Shown in pieces: positions 2,297 through 11,828 of a DNA stretch of 64,000 nucleotides. Numbering within the stretch: the stretch's first letter is position 1; each line of letters opens with the position of its first letter. The DNA lies in NCBI GenBank assembly GCA_017627955.1, contig JAGAFU010000023.1, forward strand, positions 39,756-103,755, in the 5' to 3' direction. Source of the stretch: Bacteroidales bacterium. GTDB taxonomy: Bacteria; Bacteroidota; Bacteroidia; Bacteroidales; UBA932. A program made the position numbers and the translations under genes. The notes below the pieces were generated by a model, which saw only the letters and a list, made by a program, of their open reading frames with translations, did not search any database and was not told the DNA's origin.

Positions 2297-4261
2297 ATGA
2301 GAAAGATTATATTGTTAGTTTCAGCAGCGTTGGCGATCTTCTCGTCTTGCGGGACACCCGTTCCTGAGGCCGAGGCTGACTCCCCTCTCTACAGCAGCCA
2401 CAAACCCTACACCCGGTGGTGGTGGTTCTCTTCCGAAATCGACAAGAAGGATGTTAGGGATCAACTCATCTGGCTCAAAGACCATGAGTTCGGAGGAGTG
2501 GAGATCGCCTGGGTGTATCCCATGTTCCTCAAAACTGACACTCCCCACCCCGACTTCCTTTCCCCGGAATGGAGCGAGCCGGTCGCATACGCCAAGAAAG
2601 TGGCTGATTCCCTGGGACTTGGATGCGACTACACCTACGGTACCCTATGGCCTTTCAGCGATGTGGATCTCCCGGAGGGTGACCAGACCCGCACCTATTC
2701 CGACTCCGTTGAAGTCGCCCGCAGACCTCTGACCTGGGACCACCCCAGAGAGGCCAGGATCCTCAACCACCTGGATCGGAAGGCTTTCGGACGATATGCC
2801 CAGAAGATGGATAAGGGCTTGGCCGAAGCCTACAAAGGATCCAAATCAGGAATATTCGTTGACTCCTGGGAGGTTGAGACGGATTATCTTTGGACTCCGG
2901 GTTTCGGAGAAGAGTTCAAAAAGCAGCATGGCTACGACATTGAGCCTTACATGAAAGAGCGCACCCTCAAGGACAAGTCCAACGAGGATGTCCTTTACGA
3001 CTACATGAAAACCATGTCCGGATACGTCTTGGACGAGTTCTACATCCCTTTCACTGAAAACGCCAGGGCTAACGGCGGTTTCTCAAGAGCCCAGTGCGGA
3101 GGGGCCCCCACCGACCTGCTGACAGCATTCACAGTCGTGGATATTCCTGAGACAGAGGCGATTCTATACGAGCCCTGCTTCAGCAAAATAGCCGCCTCGG
3201 CCGCAACTTTGGCCAGCAAGGACGCGGTCACCTCCGAGACCTTTACCTGCATGTACGGATGGACCAGCCTTCGCTACAAGAACGGCCACGGCCAAAGTCC
3301 CCACCAGGGACGGGAGCAGATCGCGGACCTGAAACTCGTGTGCGACGCCCTTTTCGCGACGGGAACGAACCAGATCATCTGGCACGGATTCGCTTTCAAC
3401 AAGGTCGGGAGGCTCGACAACTGGTTCTACACCACCTGCCAGGTCAGCACCAGGGATGAGGATAACCTCTCCGGAGAAGAGCTGACCAAGTTCAACCGCT
3501 ACATGACAACCGTCTCGGACTACATGCGTTCAGGTCGCAACTACAGCGACGTGGCGGTCTATATTCCTATGGAGGACGCCTGGATGGGCGGGCCATATCC
3601 GAAGGAAGTCACCGACAAGATGGCTTGGGCTCTCGGGGAATATGAGATGCGTTACATCAAAACCCCGGAGTCCCTCAAAGGACGCCAGCCCCTCTGGGTA
3701 AACGGCCATTTCCTTTCCTCGGCAAGCTACTCCGATGGGGTCCTGCGCTGCGGGGACGCGTTGTTCAAAGCCCTTTACGTCGATGTCAAGCACATGGACT
3801 ACTCCTCTCTCAAGAGCATCCTCGCCCTAGCCAAGCAGGGGCTCCCTGTCCTCGTCGCCAGCAGGCCTTCAGAGCCTGGCAAGATCAAGCACGAGGACTA
3901 CGATTCCCTTCTCGATGAGTTGTGCGCCCTTCCTTCAGTGTCTGAAAATGAAACTGTCATACCCGGTGAAGCTCTTGTGGAAGGGAAGGATATTCCCGAC
4001 TTCTGGTGCAGGGAAGACGGGAATACGATGTACATTTTCTTCGCAAATCCGCTCGCGAGCACGATCAGTTATCCGCTCGAATATTGTTACGCTTTCTCCG
4101 ACAAAGGCAGCCAGCGTGTTGTCACCATCAACCACCACGGCCGTAGCGACGAGGTCAAGCTGGATTTCCAACCGATGGAATCCATTCTGTTAAAAGCAGA
4201 TAAGAGCGGAGTGAAAAAGATTGACCTGGGATATTCGCCGACACGGCTTAAGGAAGATTAA
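2297..4261 (+). CDS. Putative glycoside hydrolase lipoprotein (GH106-like)
   Basis: Lipoprotein signal with lipobox Cys18 (IFSSC), so probably attached to the outer membrane. Just after it comes a tryptophan-rich RWWWFSS segment (residues 40-46), followed by KKDVRDQLIWLKDHEFGGVEI. This resembles the start of GH106 alpha-L-rhamnosidase-like proteins, where an (R/V)WWxW stretch precedes a barrel. At 654 residues it is shorter than usual GH106 proteins (about 850-1000) and seems to lack the C-terminal beta-sandwich. It follows the nitrilase gene after 18 bp on the same strand and its last 4 bp overlap the end of the convergent EamA gene. The family call rests on N-terminal resemblance only; catalytic residues were not assigned. 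A role in removing a terminal deoxy sugar is an inference. Confidence 0.6.
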   Translation: MRKIILLVSAALAIFSSCGTPVPEAEADSPLYSSHKPYTRWWWFSSEIDKKDVRDQLIWLKDHEFGGVEIAWVYPMFLKTDTPHPDFLSPEWSEPVAYAKKVADSLGLGCDYTYGTLWPFSDVDLPEGDQTRTYSDSVEVARRPLTWDHPREARILNHLDRKAFGRYAQKMDKGLAEAYKGSKSGIFVDSWEVETDYLWTPGFGEEFKKQHGYDIEPYMKERTLKDKSNEDVLYDYMKTMSGYVLDEFYIPFTENARANGGFSRAQCGGAPTDLLTAFTVVDIPETEAILYEPCFSKIAASAATLASKDAVTSETFTCMYGWTSLRYKNGHGQSPHQGREQIADLKLVCDALFATGTNQIIWHGFAFNKVGRLDNWFYTTCQVSTRDEDNLSGEELTKFNRYMTTVSDYMRSGRNYSDVAVYIPMEDAWMGGPYPKEVTDKMAWALGEYEMRYIKTPESLKGRQPLWVNGHFLSSASYSDGVLRCGDALFKALYVDVKHMDYSSLKSILALAKQGLPVLVASRPSEPGKIKHEDYDSLLDELCALPSVSENETVIPGEALVEGKDIPDFWCREDGNTMYIFFANPLASTISYPLEYCYAFSDKGSQRVVTINHHGRSDEVKLDFQPMESILLKADKSGVKKIDLGYSPTRLKED

Positions 4262-5184
4262 CTCCTTTGCCGTTGCCCGGCCAAGATAACGCCGGCAAGA
4301 ATAGCGACCGAGCCGATCATGGACACAGGGGTCATTCTCTCACCGAGGATGACCGCTGCTGTTATAAGAGTGAACACCGGATTGAGGTAAACATAGTTCG
4401 TTGATGTCACATTGCCAAGTTTAGACATAGCGACGTTCCATGCCACGAAACAAGCCAGGGACGCTATAAGCCCGAGGAACAGCAAGTTAAGATAAACTAC
4501 CGGCTGGCTGAGGATAGAAACGGAGAATGAGTCGGCGGACCCGGCAAGGAACGGGATAATGGTCAGCAGCCCGTAAAAGAACACCTTCCTGGTGGCCATC
4601 AGAGCTCCATAATCCTTTGTCATCTGGCCCATGAACATGCTGTAAAGCGCCCAGCACAGGGCGGCTCCTATAGACAGGAGATCCCCTTTCAGGGAAAGTT
4701 CCACGCTTGATCCTTCGAAAAGGACCATGGCCATACCGACAAGGGCGAGCAAAGTACCTCCGACGAGCGGGAATCCTAATTTGACATCCTCAAGACCGTC
4801 AGCGAACCTCCCTTTGAGAAACTTCCTGGCAATTAGCGTGAATAGTGCCGTGAAGACCGGTGCGACGCAAACGAGGAAAGCCACATTACTGGCCTGGGCG
4901 TATGCCAGGGCGGTATTCTCGGTCAGGAAATAAAACGAGCCCCCGGTGATTCCCAAAAACAGGAACACTAGCTCATCCGTCCAGCCGCGGGAAAACAATC
5001 TGGTCTCTCCTTTGCCGACGCAAAGCACCCAGATCCCGGTATAGGCAAGAGCGAAACGCACGGCGAAGATCGCGGCAGGATTCATTCCCGCGTTAATCAG
5101 TGTCTTGGTGCAGACAAAAGTCACCCCCCAGACCGCCACGACGGCCAGGGCAAGAAGATGAAACAAGGCTTTTCTTGATGACAT
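4258..5184 (-). CDS. EamA-family (DMT superfamily) transporter
   Basis: 308-residue inner-membrane protein with ten hydrophobic segments arranged as two EamA repeats (about residues 8-145 and 160-300), the normal size for RhaT/YdcZ-like drug/metabolite transporters. The N-terminal helix contains AVWGVTFVCTK, a typical first-helix motif (W-G-x-x-F). The second repeat ends VILGERMTPVSMIGSVAILAG-like, with the conserved glutamate of the family (GE). Likely exports a metabolite or amino acid; the substrate cannot be read from sequence. Convergent with the upstream glycoside hydrolase gene (4-bp overlap of ends) and divergent from the SGNH hydrolase gene, with 49 bp between starts. Confidence 0.85.
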   Translation of the reverse strand: MSSRKALFHLLALAVVAVWGVTFVCTKTLINAGMNPAAIFAVRFALAYTGIWVLCVGKGETRLFSRGWTDELVFLFLGITGGSFYFLTENTALAYAQASNVAFLVCVAPVFTALFTLIARKFLKGRFADGLEDVKLGFPLVGGTLLALVGMAMVLFEGSSVELSLKGDLLSIGAALCWALYSMFMGQMTKDYGALMATRKVFFYGLLTIIPFLAGSADSFSVSILSQPVVYLNLLFLGLIASLACFVAWNVAMSKLGNVTSTNYVYLNPVFTLITAAVILGERMTPVSMIGSVAILAGVILAGQRQRS

Positions 5185-5221
5185 TCAGTAAAATTCGCGC
5201 CGCCAATATACGAAAAATCCA

Positions 5222-5229
5222 TATCTTTA
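5222..5229 (+). promoter_or_regulatory. Putative -7 element of the SGNH hydrolase gene
   Basis: TATCTTTA matches the Bacteroidota -7 consensus TAnnTTTG at all but the last base. It ends only 4 bases before the ATG at 5234, so the transcript would have almost no leader. No clear -33 TTTG is visible. Confidence 0.35.
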
Positions 5230-5233
5230 CGTC

Positions 5234-5998
5234 ATGAAAAGAACGACCTTCACACTTATCGCCACCATTCTGGCGGCCTTATTTTCACTTTCAGGCAATA
5301 ATCTCCAGGCACAGGGGAAACGTGTCGTGTTCATAGGAGACTCAATCACTGACGGCAACTGGGGCTGCGTGTACGGCTATAAACCTACTTCCGCGGAGAG
5401 GAGCCACACGGACTTCAACCATATTTATGGCCACAGCTACATGATGCTTGTAGCCACCGATTTCCAAAGCAAGAAGCCCAAAGCTGGTTACCGATTTTTC
5501 AACCGGGGCTTCAGCGGCCACAAGTTATCCGACTTGGAGGGTCGTTGGAAGGAAGATGTCCTTGATCTCAATCCTGATGTCGTGTCAATCCTCATTGGGG
5601 TCAACGACATGTGGAACTATTTCAATGTCAAGCCTGGAGAGCGTTCCGCTTTTGATTTTGACTCTTGGAAAGAGCGTTACCGCACCCTGCTCATGAAGAC
5701 CAGGGAACAGAACCCCGCGGTGAAACTGGTTCTCTGCACGCCTTTCCTGGCAAAGGAAGGCTCAGCCGGTCTTCGGGTCGATTACGATGAACGGAAAGAG
5801 ATGGTCACCCGCATTGCCGGAATAGTCCGGGAACTCGCATCGGAGACTGGAGCTACCCTTGTCCCCTTCGACGAGCTCTTCGCAAAGCTCATAGAGACAG
5901 AGCCGGAGCCCTGCTACTGGATCTGGGACGGGATTCACCCCACCCCCGCCGGCCACCGCCGCATGGCCAACCTCTGGGAAAAGAAAGTCCGCCTCTGA
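5234..5998 (+). CDS. Secreted SGNH/GDSL-family hydrolase (esterase)
   Basis: Signal peptide of about 26 residues, then a complete SGNH hydrolase. Block I is FIGDSITDG with nucleophile Ser37; block III is GVNDMWNYF (Gly and Asn of the oxyanion hole are present); block V is DGIHPTPAGH with Asp232 and His235. At 254 residues it is a single-domain enzyme, typical of carbohydrate esterases that remove acetyl groups from glycans, though lipases share the fold. It acts in the periplasm or outside the cell. It is monocistronic: divergent from the transporter on the left and followed by the repeat-flanked transposase cassette on the right. Confidence 0.88.
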   Translation: MKRTTFTLIATILAALFSLSGNNLQAQGKRVVFIGDSITDGNWGCVYGYKPTSAERSHTDFNHIYGHSYMMLVATDFQSKKPKAGYRFFNRGFSGHKLSDLEGRWKEDVLDLNPDVVSILIGVNDMWNYFNVKPGERSAFDFDSWKERYRTLLMKTREQNPAVKLVLCTPFLAKEGSAGLRVDYDERKEMVTRIAGIVRELASETGATLVPFDELFAKLIETEPEPCYWIWDGIHPTPAGHRRMANLWEKKVRL

Positions 5999-6042
5999 AG
6001 CATCTAAATCCTCGACTAAACCTCATTAAACCGACCTACCGC

Positions 6043-6129
6043 TCCCCTCGTCCCACAAACACGGACGGAAGCGACGATATTGGCCTAAAACGCCGCCCTC
6101 GTCCTTGCTTTCAGGACGAGGGCGACACT
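6043..6129 (+). repeat. REP-like repeat, copy A
   Basis: Same sequence and orientation as 7926-8012 apart from a few differences in the first third. The second half is a perfect hairpin: 12-bp arms CGCCCTCGTCCT (6094-6105) and its complement (6113-6124) around a 7-base loop. The first part forms a weaker hairpin (CGTCC...GGACG). It lies 18 bases beyond the restored stop of the transposase (6148-6150). Confidence 0.85.
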
Positions 6130-6147
6130 ATCAACATAAGGGGGATA

Positions 6148-6384
6148 TCAAATTCGGTCGAGAGATTGTATGACTGAACTGACCGGGATCCCCGTTACGC
6201 GAGCCATTTGCTCCACATTAGAGGAAAAACGATATCTTAATTGCCTGAATAATTCTGTCAACTGCTCTTGTTCTAGACTCGAGACAGAACCAACACCAAA
6301 AAGAGCGCTACATAGATCTGGCAATGAGGCTATTATGATCTGATCTTTAAACGATGGGATCGAGGAATCTACTGAATTCTGCCT
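6148..6384 (-). pseudogene. Out-of-frame C-terminal part of the RAYT transposase
   Basis: Directly after the A8 tract the minus strand stays open for 78 codons in the +1 frame and ends at TGA 6148-6150. It encodes IASLPDLCSALFG, then LTELFRQLRYRFSS and ARVTGIPVSSVIQSLDRI. The last part looks like the small helix-turn-helix tail seen at the end of many Bacteroidota RAYT proteins. Joined to the upstream frame it gives a protein of 289 residues, a normal length for the family. Removing one A from the tract restores the frame, so this is either an indel mutation, an assembly error, or a slippage-controlled fusion. Confidence 0.75.
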
Positions 6385-7018
6385 TTTTTTTGGCTTTTGA
6401 AGAATTCATCAGGAAGTAATTGTACCGTTTAGGCGTTCTGAACACCGATTCTACGAACTTGACTTTAACATACGACTCCGGTAGAATATACCCATCTTTA
6501 CCAACCCGCAAATTTCCAGGAAGTTTAACTTTACTGTGGAGAAATCTAGCCTGATGCCTTCCAGAAAAACAACAAAGACTCTTTCCCTCGTGAGGATAAG
6601 CTTTGAAGAATGCCCCGCCTGTTCCCCATGGGTAAGAGAAGGGTTCAGCACAAATATTCGCAGCCACACAATTCATCTGGACGTATGCTATCGCTCTCTC
6701 CAAAGATTCATCTTCCAGACTCAATTCCTGAATATCATTCTTATTGCCTCGCAAGAGTTCTTTAACCCCATACTTCAGGCGGAAATATCTGGAATACTGC
6801 TTCTTAAGTTCATTGATAAACATCTCGGCCATCCATTTCTCGCATTCAAGCACAAAATGGACATGGTTAGACATCAAGATGAAAGCGAGTACAGACACTT
6901 TCAAGGTAAAAGCGACTACCGCGACAAGGTTCATCGCGACAACGAAATCATCAGAGTCCCTAAACCAAACCTTATCTTCAAGATGCTCAGTAGTAACCAG
7001 GTAGTATTTCATGATCAA
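6347..7018 (-). CDS. IS200-like / REP-associated tyrosine (Y1 HUH) transposase
   Basis: Single-strand DNA transposase of the Y1 HUH family. The HUH motif is MSNHVHFVLE with His52 and His54 for metal binding; the likely catalytic Tyr112 is in AYVQMNCVAANI, followed by FSYPWGTGG, which matches the RAYT pattern Y-x-x-x-N-P-V-x-A ... Y-P-W-S-S. FVESVFRTPKRYNYFL near residue 190 is also typical. The frame ends at 6347 shortly after AAAAAAAAG (6384-6391 on the other strand as T8); the expected C-terminus continues in another frame to 6148. The start ATG overlaps the TGA of the HD-like gene by 4 bases, so the two are translationally coupled. It would nick and join REP-type hairpins; activity of the truncated form is uncertain. 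Confidence 0.85.
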   Translation of the reverse strand: MIMKYYLVTTEHLEDKVWFRDSDDFVVAMNLVAVVAFTLKVSVLAFILMSNHVHFVLECEKWMAEMFINELKKQYSRYFRLKYGVKELLRGNKNDIQELSLEDESLERAIAYVQMNCVAANICAEPFSYPWGTGGAFFKAYPHEGKSLCCFSGRHQARFLHSKVKLPGNLRVGKDGYILPESYVKVKFVESVFRTPKRYNYFLMNSSKAKKKAEFSRFLDPIV

Positions 7019-7857
7019 AAAGGCAATTCTAGATCATCTTCAGATTCCCATTGTTCATCAGATTGTTCATAATACTCCAAGGCCAATGTGTCAGCATGCC
7101 ACTCATCAAACCACCTCATGACTTGCCTTGCATTGTCTTCCCGCAGCTCAGGGGAAAAATCGCCGGGAAGATGTTCCAGCTTATTATACCTACCAAGCAA
7201 CTCGATTGTCTGGCTATATTTTTCTATAAGATTATTTCTCTCTTTTTCGGAGATAGGGCGCAGTAGCAAACAGTCGTCATCTTCAGGAACACGTCGGGAT
7301 AATGTACCGTTCCTTCTGATTTTTATACCCACAACATAGTGTTTCTTCCAAGGCAAGGCATAATAATGAGGACCGTATGCCGCATCCGGGTCGTTGAGTA
7401 TTCTCAACTTGTCTTCCAAATCGTATATCAGGACATTCCGGGCGACTCGATTTGCCGCAATAGAATAGACCCACATACGATAGTCTTTCGTCATCTCCGT
7501 TTCAGACACTAGCCACTCATTCAGCTGATCCCCTTCCAAGTCTTGTGGCCTGTTGAGATTAAGGAGATCAGCCTCCGTCAAATCATCCGATGCTTTCAAA
7601 CGGAAAGGTTTGCCGGGATATACGAACAGATCCAAAGCCGGTTTCCACAGAGGAGATTCTTCTACATCACAAGAGAATAACCCCCTCGCATAAGAGGAGC
7701 CACCATAGACTTCGTGCATCAGGCCAACCACCATCTCATCGAAATTTCTGGCCTTTGCCATTACCCTAAAAGAGTGGGCTACAACAGGGATTCTGCCAGA
7801 TCCCCAATCCAATGACGTCAAGTCAAGGATACTTAGACATTGATTTAAGATCATCAT
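7015..7857 (-). CDS. HD-domain-like protein coupled to the RAYT transposase
   Basis: 280 residues, no signal peptide, acidic C-terminus (EQWESEDDLELPF). The N-terminal third resembles the RelA/SpoT-type HD phosphohydrolase fold: a first histidine in PVVAHSFRVM (His28), then VVGLMHEVYGGS where an HD would be expected (His48-Glu49, so HE instead of HD), and much later ARNVLIYDLEDKLRIL (Asp147), like the VKLADLxDN helix of that family. The residues between and after are not recognised. It has its own upstream repeat (7926-8012) and ends inside the transposase start codon, which strongly suggests a shared function or shared mobility. Whether it is an active nucleotide hydrolase is unknown; the HD-to-HE change argues for caution. 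Met at 7854 is an alternative start. Confidence 0.6.
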   Translation of the reverse strand: MMILNQCLSILDLTSLDWGSGRIPVVAHSFRVMAKARNFDEMVVGLMHEVYGGSSYARGLFSCDVEESPLWKPALDLFVYPGKPFRLKASDDLTEADLLNLNRPQDLEGDQLNEWLVSETEMTKDYRMWVYSIAANRVARNVLIYDLEDKLRILNDPDAAYGPHYYALPWKKHYVVGIKIRRNGTLSRRVPEDDDCLLLRPISEKERNNLIEKYSQTIELLGRYNKLEHLPGDFSPELREDNARQVMRWFDEWHADTLALEYYEQSDEQWESEDDLELPF

Positions 7858-7925
7858 GGTTTAAATTAGATTAAGATAACTTCCCCTAAATATAATCAAA
7901 TCTTCTGGACTTTTAACCAGAATGT

Positions 7926-8012
7926 TCCCCTCGTCCCAAAAATAGGGACGAAAGCGACGATATTGGCCTAAAACGCCGCCCTCGTCCTTGCTTTCAGGAC
8001 GAGGGCGACACT
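7926..8012 (+). repeat. REP-like repeat, copy B
   Basis: Direct copy of 6043-6129. It has the same perfect 12-bp hairpin with 7-base loop, and a better first hairpin (TCGTCCC and GGGACGA around 7 bases). The hairpins share the core CTCGTCC and are joined by GCGACGATATTGGCC. It sits between the HD-like gene start (7857) and the end of the GH31-GH78 gene (8049). Confidence 0.85.
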
Positions 8013-8048: not shown

Positions 8049-11000
8049 TTAAATCCGGGTTTGGAAGTGGTGATGGCCGCCGGTTATGACCGTAGGAGTT
8101 GATTCACCGGGGATATAGACTTCAGTACGAATGCCTTCCGGGACCTCGACATCCCATTTGAATATTCCATCCTCCACCTTCCAGGAGCTGGAGATCCTGC
8201 CCTGGACTGAATCATAGTGGCAGTTCACATATTCAAGTCCGGAGATAGGATAGGGCCTCAATTCAATCTCCGCGAATCCCGGCTTTAACGGCCGTATCCC
8301 CGCCAGGTACTCATATTCCCACGTGATCAGGTCGCCGAGAAGCATGACGTGGTTGCCAGAGTTCATCGCCGGATCGGCGGTGTCTCCGTTCCAAAGCTCC
8401 CAGATCGTGGTAGCCCCCCGGGCAGCCATATATCCCCAAGAAGGATAAGTGTCGTCAGAGGCGATCTTTAAAGCCAAATCAGGACGGCCGAACTCGGTCA
8501 AGGTTCTCATAAGCACCTGTATGCCAATAACTCCCGAGCTGACATGCCCTCCGAACTCTTTCTCGGTCTTATCCACCAAAGAAGCGAAAACCCTCGGTTG
8601 CTCCTGAGTCGGGACAAGTCCGTACCAGAGCGCCAACAGGTTGGCCGTCACAGTGTTATTGTCGTAATATCCCCCCTGCTGATTATAATAGGCACGGTTG
8701 AAGGCCTCCGTACTGGCCTTCCTCTCTGTCTCGAAATACTCCACATCTCCTGGATAGCCGGCGACAGGAGCGAGCTCCTTCATGACATCGCAATAATGAA
8801 TATAGTACGGAGTGGCTATGACCGCAGGAGCCGTGATACGTGTAGGATCTTGGGAATGAATCATTTCCAAGGACTCCGGTGGCATACACCAATCCCCGTA
8901 ATTGTCCTTTGTCATGATCCCGTCCACCATGTACCTGTCCTTCATGTAGGCAAGCCATTTCCTCATCGCAGGATAGTGCTTTACGATGACCTCCTCGTCT
9001 CCGAACCGCTGGTAAAGCATCCTGGCAGCGTCAATGAACAATCCAGGCCAAGTCATATTGTCAGGACGCACGGTCCAGAAATTTGGAGCCACGCTCGGGA
9101 GCTGCCCTTCCTCGTTCTGCTCCGTGGCGATGTCGTCCAGCCATTTGGCATAAAGGGCATGGTTGTCGAATATCCAACTCTCACCGTAGCAACCCGTGGC
9201 CCTGTCTCCCAGCCAGCCCATTCGTTCATCCCTCTGAGGGCAGTCGGTCGGCATCCCGCGATAGTTCCCACGGATTCCCCAGAAAGCGTTCTTATAAACC
9301 TGATTAATAACAGGATCCGAACATTCGAAATGGCCTGTCGTGGCCATCTTGTCATATATTACTTGCCCTTCGAAATCCTCAAGGGACGGCTCGTACGACA
9401 GCCCGCTAATCTCCACAAACCTGAATCCATGATACACGAAAAGCGGATGCCAGACAAACTCCTGATCATCCCCGGCGATGTAATAATCCCTCGCTTTGGC
9501 TGAACGAAGATTCTCGGTATATAGCTCACCATTCTCCTGAAGTGTCTCGGCGAAACGCATCTTCAGTGTATCGCCACGGCTCATGGTAGCCCGGACTTGA
9601 AGCCATCCAACCATGTTCTGACCCATGTCGAGAATATACCGTCCTCCACTTAAGCGACTAATTGCCACCGGCTTAACCAGATCCTGAACCTCGATGTTGG
9701 GATTATGCTGCGGAGTAAGCCTGCCGTAAGGAGCCTCGGCCGCCTCCGCCTGATGCCAAGCACTGTCATCATACGAAGGATCGAGCCATCCGCCAAGTTC
9801 CATCCTCGCGTCATAGATCTCTCCGTCATATTCATTGTTGGAGCGGATCGGGCCGTCGGCCGTCGCTTTCCAGCCCTTGCCACTTATGATCTTCTGGACA
9901 CTGCCGTCAGAATACTTAATCTCAAGTTGGAAAAGAAGACAAGGAAGTTGTTTGTCGTAATGTTTTGTTTTGTTGCCGGAGTTCAAATTCACCCGGACTC
10001 CCGGGAAACGCCCTGTACCAAGTATAACTCCTACCGCATTAGTTCCCTTTTGCAAAAGCCCGGTCACATCGAAACTATTGTAATACACGGTCTTATCATA
10101 GTTGGAGACAGTCGGCATCAGAACCTGCTCTTCCCCAACCTTGAACCCGTTGATATATGCCTCATAAAGGCCCAAGCCACAAATATGCAACCAAGCCTCA
10201 CCAACTGTCTTGCCCGACTGGAAAGTGGTTCTTAAGTATCTTGCGGGAAGGGACACATCGCCAGTCCTGACATCCTCCGGAGAAGTGATACCGATCCAAG
10301 ACGCTTCCCAACTGACCATCGGCTTCCTAAACACTATCTGGCAAGGCTTGGAGGTCTTCCCGGAGATCTTGGATTTCCCGGTCACAGGATTATACCTCAC
10401 CCTGCAATCGCTGTAAGAGGTTCCCTCACCATCAGGGAGATGGAGGGTCACATCGACAGGTTGATCTCCCGGAACTATCAGTATATCAATATGATCGCCC
10501 TCATCCATCGGGATGACAGCCCCAACCCTGGCATAAAGGGGGAACTCGTCGAGGGCATATTCCTTCTCAACGACAGAGCCCCCATGCAGGCGATCACGGG
10601 ATACCCATTCGGTCCAATCGTCCCCTTCTGGAAGAACAAAGGAAACATTTGAGTCATAATCAGTTATTGCCTTTGTGAAAAGATCCGGTCCCAGACGGTG
10701 GCTCTCCTGCTCGAAATCAACATCCCGAAGCAGAGTGCCGCCATTCAGATGAGCGTCAACGATTGTGGAAAAGATGTACGGGACAAGTTTCTTGTGGAGA
10801 AGTACCACGTCACGATAAATCTTACCTGCCTCCTCACCGTGCCACCATGCGAGATGGTTCTCAAACGGCTTATTGGCACCTCCGTTAACCATGCCTGCCG
10901 TAAGGGCTCCGAACTGTGCGTACCTTATGAGCTGCTCCTTGCCGGGAGCCGCTCCGTTGAATCCGCCCACCTCTGTTCCGACTGCACCGTAGCCATGTTC

Positions 11001-11828
11001 CGCTGAGGTGTAAATATTCTTGATTTGGGCTTTAAGGCCCTTCCATTCTCCGGAGAAATCACCGCACCAGCCAAGACTAAGCTTGTTCTTGCTGGAGTTA
11101 TCCGCATCACCCTGGAATGAATACGGTCTGGCCAAAATCATTCCCACGCCAGGACGACGGCTATTCACATAGTCGTACATGGCGTCATAGTAGAAATGCC
11201 TGTATTCCTTATTGGACATTTCCCCTACGCTGGTCACGACAGGCTCAGGAATGCTCAATTCTCCCTGGTCAACCTTGAAGCCATACACCCCTCCTTCCAT
11301 CACCTTGTCAAGCTGCGAATACCACCATGCGGTAGCCTCCGGATTCGTGAAATCGACATGAACTCCCGTGCCCTTCCACCAATTGTAAGGATTTCCACCA
11401 TTCACAACGAATCCATTGGAAACCGCCTCGTCATAATTGGAACTTTTATCTACCGGGCAATCCGCACTGACGGTATTCACACAGCCAGTCAGCCAAAGGA
11501 TCGAATGGACACCCTTGTCGAGAAGGCCGGAAGTCAGTTTCTGCGGCTCCGGATAACGGTTCGTGTCCCATGTGAAATTGTTGTAACTAGTGGACCAAGG
11601 GCTGTCTATTATGACTCCATCAACAGGAATATTCCTATCTAAATAACCATCAACCAAACGGTTCACCGCCTCCTGCGTGTTGAACTCATCCTCCCAGACG
11701 ATATGCCCCAAAGCCCACGCCGGAGTGACGGGAATATTATTATCTATATCCGACTCGGAATTGACTTTCGCGCACGAACCAGCAAGAACCACCAGCAGGG
11801 CGAACAGAATCGATTTTAAAGCTTTCAT
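8049..11828 (-). CDS. GH31-GH78 fusion lipoprotein (glycosidase + alpha-L-rhamnosidase)
   Basis: 1259 residues with lipobox Cys19 (LAGSC), so a surface or periplasmic lipoprotein. Residues about 36-480 are a GH31 barrel: nucleophile Asp187 in YGFKVDQGEL and acid/base Asp257 in LGWCGDFSG. The N-terminal beta-sandwich usual in GH31 is missing; the barrel begins almost directly after the signal. Residues about 505-1259 are a full GH78 alpha-L-rhamnosidase: N-terminal sandwich (WEASWIG, AWLHICGLGLYEAYING), then the six-hairpin barrel with CPQRDERMGW (Asp867, Glu868) and TTIWELWNGD (Glu1144, the expected base). It should cut two adjacent linkages, one rhamnosidic, in a rhamnose-containing glycan or glycoside. 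It is monocistronic and lies right of the mobile cassette. Confidence 0.88.
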   Translation of the reverse strand: MKALKSILFALLVVLAGSCAKVNSESDIDNNIPVTPAWALGHIVWEDEFNTQEAVNRLVDGYLDRNIPVDGVIIDSPWSTSYNNFTWDTNRYPEPQKLTSGLLDKGVHSILWLTGCVNTVSADCPVDKSSNYDEAVSNGFVVNGGNPYNWWKGTGVHVDFTNPEATAWWYSQLDKVMEGGVYGFKVDQGELSIPEPVVTSVGEMSNKEYRHFYYDAMYDYVNSRRPGVGMILARPYSFQGDADNSSKNKLSLGWCGDFSGEWKGLKAQIKNIYTSAEHGYGAVGTEVGGFNGAAPGKEQLIRYAQFGALTAGMVNGGANKPFENHLAWWHGEEAGKIYRDVVLLHKKLVPYIFSTIVDAHLNGGTLLRDVDFEQESHRLGPDLFTKAITDYDSNVSFVLPEGDDWTEWVSRDRLHGGSVVEKEYALDEFPLYARVGAVIPMDEGDHIDILIVPGDQPVDVTLHLPDGEGTSYSDCRVRYNPVTGKSKISGKTSKPCQIVFRKPMVSWEASWIGITSPEDVRTGDVSLPARYLRTTFQSGKTVGEAWLHICGLGLYEAYINGFKVGEEQVLMPTVSNYDKTVYYNSFDVTGLLQKGTNAVGVILGTGRFPGVRVNLNSGNKTKHYDKQLPCLLFQLEIKYSDGSVQKIISGKGWKATADGPIRSNNEYDGEIYDARMELGGWLDPSYDDSAWHQAEAAEAPYGRLTPQHNPNIEVQDLVKPVAISRLSGGRYILDMGQNMVGWLQVRATMSRGDTLKMRFAETLQENGELYTENLRSAKARDYYIAGDDQEFVWHPLFVYHGFRFVEISGLSYEPSLEDFEGQVIYDKMATTGHFECSDPVINQVYKNAFWGIRGNYRGMPTDCPQRDERMGWLGDRATGCYGESWIFDNHALYAKWLDDIATEQNEEGQLPSVAPNFWTVRPDNMTWPGLFIDAARMLYQRFGDEEVIVKHYPAMRKWLAYMKDRYMVDGIMTKDNYGDWCMPPESLEMIHSQDPTRITAPAVIATPYYIHYCDVMKELAPVAGYPGDVEYFETERKASTEAFNRAYYNQQGGYYDNNTVTANLLALWYGLVPTQEQPRVFASLVDKTEKEFGGHVSSGVIGIQVLMRTLTEFGRPDLALKIASDDTYPSWGYMAARGATTIWELWNGDTADPAMNSGNHVMLLGDLITWEYEYLAGIRPLKPGFAEIELRPYPISGLEYVNCHYDSVQGRISSSWKVEDGIFKWDVEVPEGIRTEVYIPGESTPTVITGGHHHFQTRI

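What the first reader, a model, noticed from the sequence alone, without database searches (positions are those of the whole stretch)
6043..8012. Repeat-bounded RAYT transposase with a coupled HD-like partner
Seen: two direct 87-bp hairpin repeats enclose exactly two genes, an HUH (HVH, Tyr112) transposase and an HD-like protein, overlapping by 4 bases. The cassette is richer in A+T than its neighbours. Known: RAYTs usually stand alone and act on REP hairpins as single domesticated genes. A translationally coupled HD-like protein inside the repeats is not something I recognise. Inference: the HD-like protein could act on nucleotides or DNA ends in the same process, making a two-gene REP mobility or defence module.
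Basis: partly seen in the sequence, partly recalled or inferred. Interest (0 to 1): 0.8.

Follow-up and report, generated by a model that had tools for sequence, protein, structure and literature searches.

The report
Two-gene REP transposase unit, pseudo-hydrolase partner
In some Bacteroidales bacteria, a gene for a hairpin-cutting DNA enzyme comes paired with a gene for a protein that looks like a worn-out stress-signal hydrolase, and the pair sits between matching DNA hairpins like one insertable unit whose second part may steer the first.

Summary
Two 87-bp direct repeats (95% identical, each two hairpins) enclose two genes: a RAYT-type Y1/HUH transposase and, directly upstream, a 280-aa protein. 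Searches with that protein alone gave 14 distinct loci (12 in the window's genus, two named only as Bacteroidales); 14 of 14 have a RAYT or its remnant directly 3'. Sixty other RAYT loci of the genus, taken from the best matches, have none. The pair lies at six genomic places. At the window's place two relatives lack both genes and both repeats; at another, two genomes with 91%-identical flanks carry units only about 70% alike.

The window's own RAYT frame is broken at an A8 run. Related hairpins lie at eight other places in its genome. Verdict: a new, two-gene variant of the REPtron; the partner's function is inferred.

The parts
6005..6011 (+). TAAATCC, left outer border of the insertion; the same 7-mer lies at the right border and one copy (TATATCC) at the empty site of G042
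   Evidence: also at both borders in L038
6043..6129 (.). left 87-bp direct repeat: doublet of two hairpins, the second imperfect
6148..6399 (-). rest of the RAYT C-terminal helical domain, in another frame from the N-terminal part
6347..7012 (-). RAYT (Y1/HUH transposase), main frame from the ATG at 7012; HUH = NHVH, Tyr110
   Evidence: fold of the intact relative in L038:
6384..6391 (-). run of eight A on the coding strand at which the RAYT frame breaks
7015..7857 (-). partner: diverged small-alarmone-hydrolase fold (280 aa), acidic C-terminal tail ending ELPF
7926..8012 (.). right 87-bp direct repeat: doublet of two hairpins, centres 51 nt apart
8050..8056 (+). TAAATCC, right outer border; overlaps the stop codon of the neighbouring GH31-GH78 gene

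Best explanation
This is a two-gene REPtron: a RAYT that nicks and rejoins single-stranded DNA at its own hairpin doublets (inferred from its family), plus a dedicated partner encoded just before it. Shown by sequence: the pairing, the bounding doublets, the whole-unit empty site, the difference of whole units at one place between shared flanks, the predicted fold of the partner, the loss of its catalytic residues, and purifying selection on it. Inferred: the partner no longer hydrolyses alarmones; it works as a binding subunit that steers or gates the RAYT, perhaps keeping the old nucleotide pocket as a sensor, and in the lineages with an -LPF tail by engaging the host proteins that dock on the SSB tail at exposed single-stranded DNA. 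The doublets let the unit, rarely, enter or leave a site as a whole.
Against: No interaction was tested. The -LPF tail is in 6 of 13 members with a readable C-terminus, three more end in -SF, four (L041, L042, G157, G290) in neither, so it cannot be the core function. In four loci (window, G090, G457, G453) the RAYT frame is broken while the partner is intact. Six of ten partners keep His, His, Glu and Asp and might still hold a metal. Foldseek gives no hit at E 0.001 or below (best 0.11), and of the two 7smg stretches the stronger alone has E 0.005. The doublets of L047 fold little better than shuffles (30 and 7 of 200 as stable). 0% of 200 bootstrap trees have the partner-linked RAYTs as one group. 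All genomes here appear to be metagenome assemblies.
Confidence: 0.55

Rival explanations
1. The partner is still an enzyme (alarmone, nucleotide or NADPH hydrolase with altered chemistry) that changes the nucleotide state of the cell while the RAYT acts.
For: SAH fold; both histidines invariant; 6 of 10 keep His, His, Glu and the metal Asp.
Against: The Asp of the HD pair is Glu or Ala in all 10; the Glu-Asp pair is lost in 10 of 10; the later metal Asp is Lys or Ser in 4 of 10.
Confidence: 0.15
2. The partner is only a passenger gene caught between the doublets, with no role in the RAYT reaction.
For: Other RAYT cassettes of the genus hold unrelated ORFs inside their repeats: DUF2147 (L143), TSCPD (L107), an HTH protein (L112), unknowns (L106, L110, L151). 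The partner stays intact in four loci with a broken RAYT.
Against: Those others were seen at one locus each of the 60 read; this pairing is 14 of 14 over members down to 39% identity and six places, with start and stop codons close or overlapping.
Confidence: 0.17
3. A defence or toxin-antitoxin module: SAH proteins are often found with toxic alarmone synthetases.
For: That association of SAHs (abstract start of PMC9765508, listing); patchy distribution, 12 of 400 genus genomes.
Against: No synthetase in the unit; no PADLOC match; hydrolase residues lost; no member confirmed in viral contigs.
Confidence: 0.07
4. A decaying relic: the unit was once mobile and its reading frames survive only by recent common descent.
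For: RAYT broken or cut short in 5 of 14 loci: window, G090, G457, G453, G045.
Against: In 9 of 14 loci the RAYT is open over (nearly) its full length; dN/dS is well under 1 for both genes.
Confidence: 0.06

Closest known systems
REPtron (tnpAREP/RAYT gene flanked by REP hairpins)
   Same: Y1/HUH transposase of the RAYT kind; flanked by hairpins that differ from RAYT to RAYT; related solo hairpins elsewhere in the genome.
   Different: Two genes, not one. Doublets are direct repeats with hairpins about 52 nt apart, whereas Nunvar 2010 describes two REPs in inverted orientation (PMC2817692, passages). [quoted passage not shown]
Small alarmone hydrolases (7smg of Bacteroides caccae, MESH1, Rel hydrolase domain)
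   Same: Domain of about residues 1-230 by profile and fold; an ordinary SAH of the same genus aligns along it (L168).
   Different: Catalytic Glu-Asp lost in 10 of 10; insert with LPWKKH; long, mostly acidic tail.
IS200/IS605 elements (IS608, ISDra2)
   Same: Predicted fold of the transposase domain; accessory gene next to tnpA, as with tnpB (abstract start of PMC8612924, listing).
   Different: No family search relates the accessory gene to TnpB; ends are double-hairpin direct repeats; the RAYT has an extra C-terminal helical domain.

Membership tests
RAYT / TnpAREP | Y1_Tnp domain with HUH and one Tyr | tested here: met
   PF01797 27.7 bits, cut-off 23; NHVH and Tyr invariant; Foldseek prob 1.00 to IS608, ISDra2 and, at rank 42 (E 0.02), to 4er8, a REP-associated transposase (model of the L038 RAYT)
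RAYT / TnpAREP | NCBIfam REP_Tyr_transpos curated cut-off | tested here: not met
   38.7 bits against a cut-off of 80, E 8.7e-10: a diverged member or a sister family
RAYT / TnpAREP | gene flanked by hairpins of its own kind | tested here: met
   45 of 60 other RAYT loci of the genus have a direct repeat on both sides
RAYT / TnpAREP | GTAG/GTGG tetranucleotide at the foot of the hairpin | not tested
   no systematic search made; Bacteroidetes subclass 2.6 is reported without it (PMC6006769, passages)
Small alarmone hydrolase | HD-type SAH fold | tested here: met
Small alarmone hydrolase | HDxxED and metal ligands (motif recalled; seen as HDVIED in L168 and HDTIED in 7smg) | tested here: not met
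   0 of 10 partners have the HD pair, 0 of 10 the Glu-Asp pair
Small alarmone hydrolase | alarmone hydrolysis | not testable with these tools
   needs protein
IS200/IS605-like mobile unit | unit found at several places, with empty sites | tested here: met
   six places; empty site shown at one of them; none obtained at a second
IS200/IS605-like mobile unit | cleavage at a short target and hairpin-guided ends | not testable with these tools
   needs biochemistry
known anti-phage defence system | match to a PADLOC profile | tested here: not met
   no match for either protein up to E 1

The most novel reading that the evidence does not exclude
The partner is a former alarmone hydrolase turned sensor: it binds an alarmone or other nucleotide and, through an SSB-like tail, docks at stalled or gapped replication forks, so that the RAYT is licensed to cut and move its hairpin doublets, and the whole two-gene unit, only under starvation or fork stress. 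It would be the first stress-gated, two-component REP mobiliser.
Probability: 0.15. Interest if true: 0.82.

Novelty: new variant of a known kind. Interest (0 to 1): 0.6.

Why it matters
TnpAREP/RAYT proteins are described as domesticated transposases that behave like housekeeping genes and whose way of spreading REPs is still to be worked out (PMC8266576, passages). A dedicated, conserved second protein offers a handle on that, and a doublet-bounded unit with an empty site lets one test whether a REPtron can move as a whole. The partner is also a natural pseudo-hydrolase, a chance to see the alarmone-hydrolase fold used for binding rather than catalysis.

Tried and rejected
Family libraries: the partner has no match up to E 1 in NCBIfam, PHROGs or PADLOC and only sub-cut-off Pfam matches (best E 0.02); a profile of 11 members was needed to find the SAH link. 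Phages: one scan of viral contigs with two peptide patterns, 33 pattern matches, none confirmed. Wider spread: 395 genomes of the phylum gave, besides the window's own, two 20-bit hits, both to ordinary SAHs; G451 in the genus was likewise an ordinary SAH and was dropped from the count. These scans find near relatives; distant partners away from RAYTs could be missed. The RAYT profile A5 found no solved structure by sequence; its fold did.

Second empty site: the DAHP-synthase flank of L042 was looked up in 151 genomes (123 matched) and 30 loci read; L042's other neighbour is not found beside it there, so nothing follows. L041 and L042 were first counted as two places; both follow a GH20 gene and their left flanks align, so they count as one.

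Against frequent jumping: in six of the seven pairs of related stand-alone RAYTs that I compared, a long flank is shared on at least one side; only L108/L154 shares little beyond the gene. Empty-site direction is not settled: in the adjoining flanks G042 is closer to the window's genome (90% and 89%) than L038 is (78% and 84%), yet L038 has the unit and G042 does not; a stretch further left (3742-4257) gives the opposite order (68% against 89%). Precise loss in G042 or exchange between the other two would both fit. Programmed frameshift or slippage at the A8 run: cannot be told from one assembly.

Papers: eight searches; no title or abstract start in their capped listings shows a RAYT with a coupled HD or SAH protein. 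Preprints and most subscription papers are not in that library; one paper asked for was not held.

Full report
What is there. The window is part of a 2.58-Mb, 60-contig genome. On the minus strand, a 280-aa gene (7015-7857) is followed at once by a RAYT (6347-7012), between two direct repeats at 6043-6129 and 7926-8012. The repeats are 95% identical over 87 bp. Each is a doublet of hairpins; as single strands both copies fold better than 200 of 200 shuffles. The unit is poorer in GC than its neighbours on both sides.

How often the two genes go together. I searched with the partner, not with the RAYT, so the RAYT neighbour was not built in. One protein search of 150 genomes found 4, the window's own included. 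A scan of genome contigs (84,980 species) with four partners as a profile, through two peptide patterns, found 10 loci, all titled Bacteroidales or Bacteroidia, many from rumen series by their names. An 11-member profile over 400 genomes of the genus hit 13; one (G451) proved an ordinary SAH and was dropped. Together there are 14 distinct loci: the window, L038-L047, G157, G290 and the remnant G045; L041 and L042 are known only as Bacteroidales. In 14 of 14 a RAYT or its remnant lies directly 3'. Nine of these RAYTs are open over (nearly) their full length; those of the window, G090, G457, G453 and G045 are not. In 395 genomes of the phylum no further true member was seen.

RAYTs by themselves are common: 82 of 150 genomes. 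I fetched 60 loci from the top of that list, leaving out those with the partner, with up to 3 kb on each side. None of the 60 has the partner; 45 have a direct repeat on both sides within 2.5 kb, 37 of them close to the gene. Of 68 repeat copies of 70 nt or more, a strict scan sees two hairpins in 33; in 30 of these the centres are 51-53 nt apart, in 3 it is 26; 0 of 170 shuffled copies have two. So hairpin doublets about 52 nt apart, near five turns of B-DNA (recalled), are frequent around RAYTs of this genus, with stems that differ from locus to locus. The second gene is the exception. On a tree of 71 RAYTs (60 and 11 partner-linked; the remnants L039, L044 and G045 were left out) the label needs three changes, against 10.4 in shuffles. 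One origin with losses is not excluded, but 0% of 200 bootstrap trees show one group, and near-copies help such clustering.

Among the partner loci, repeats on both sides were found in the window, L038, L042, L043, L045 and L047; in L041, L044 and L046 the search showed a hairpin pair on one side only, and in L039 and L040 it found no pair at all, though one doublet each is visible upstream of the partner (model matches in G457 and G090).

Does the unit move? Flanking genes show six places: GDSL hydrolase | GH78 (window, L038-L040); MFS or pectinesterase | GH97 (L043-L047); 3' of a GH20 gene (L041, L042); and one each in G157, G290 and the remnant G045. At the first place G042 has both flanks but neither gene nor repeat: window 3742-6011 and 8049-9540 adjoin there, and G017 is likewise empty. 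The 7-mer TAAATCC stands at both outer borders in the window and in L038, and once, as TATATCC, in G042. The missing stretch is about 2,045 bp. At the GH97 place L046 and L047 share both flanks at 91%, while the units between them are only 69-70% alike where they align at all and their hairpins differ: one unit seems to have replaced another. Window and L038 are 92-97% alike in RAYT and repeats where the flanking genes average 78% (left) and 84% (right), though single 200-bp windows of flank reach 90%; two thirds of the partner gene between them are only 57-64% alike. I read this as recombination within and around the unit. On the other side, most related stand-alone RAYTs that I compared share a flank, so moving looks rare.

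The repeats elsewhere. A covariance model built from six doublets finds ten places in this genome at E below 0.01: two here, six other full-length doublets (two of them used to build the model) and two single hairpins. None of the eight others has a RAYT within 1.5 kb, by tblastn with 16 queries. They look like a small REPIN-like family.

The tail. Six of 13 members end in an acidic stretch with -LPF, three more in -SF, four in neither. The host SSB ends DDLPF. Among 335 ORFs of 150 aa or more from the window and the 60 loci (longest-first, some perhaps not genes), one ends in [LIV]PF: this protein. The SSB tip binds many genome-maintenance proteins, its Pro-Phe filling a pocket (PMC7913777, passages); Ssb restrains IS608 (PMC5371812, passages). 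A link to fork proteins is a fair guess for those lineages only.

Place among known things. The RAYT is a diverged member: Pfam cut-off met, NCBIfam cut-off not met, predicted fold of IS608, ISDra2 and 4er8. What differs from published REPtrons, as far as the passages I read go, is the second gene, the direct-repeat doublets and the whole-unit empty site. I call it a new variant of a known kind.

Noticed in passing
L143, L107, L112, L106, L110, L151: Other RAYT cassettes of the genus hold unrelated ORFs between their repeats (DUF2147, TSCPD, an HTH protein, unknowns): doublet-bounded cargo may be more general.
   Followed up: partly
L104:3980-6255 against L113:2256-2518 (numbered along the RAYT strand): Two closely related RAYT loci agree up to the downstream doublet; then one has about 2.3 kb where the other has about 0.26 kb, before they agree again.
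   Followed up: no
L021:1172-1639: A tandem array of hairpin units with an exact 52-nt step beside a RAYT; shorter arrays in L016, L022 and L024.
   Followed up: no
window 7015-7670 against L038: Two thirds of the partner gene are replaced by a very different allele while the RAYT stays alike: localised recombination, perhaps diversifying.
   Followed up: partly
L059:1461-1794, reverse-strand numbering (G045): A deletion joins about the first 32 residues of the partner in frame to the C-terminal domain of the RAYT, at a shared Ser-Phe-Arg stretch.
   Followed up: partly
L168:2640-3245: An ordinary SAH of the same genus with intact HDVIED and a C-terminal stretch matching the start of the GcrA family (28.9 bits, cut-off 26.9).
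   Followed up: partly
window 8049-11828: One 1,259-aa ORF joins a GH31 to a GH78 (alpha-L-rhamnosidase) part; L039 has the same fusion, while in L038 the GH78 part is an ORF of its own, 791 aa.
   Followed up: partly
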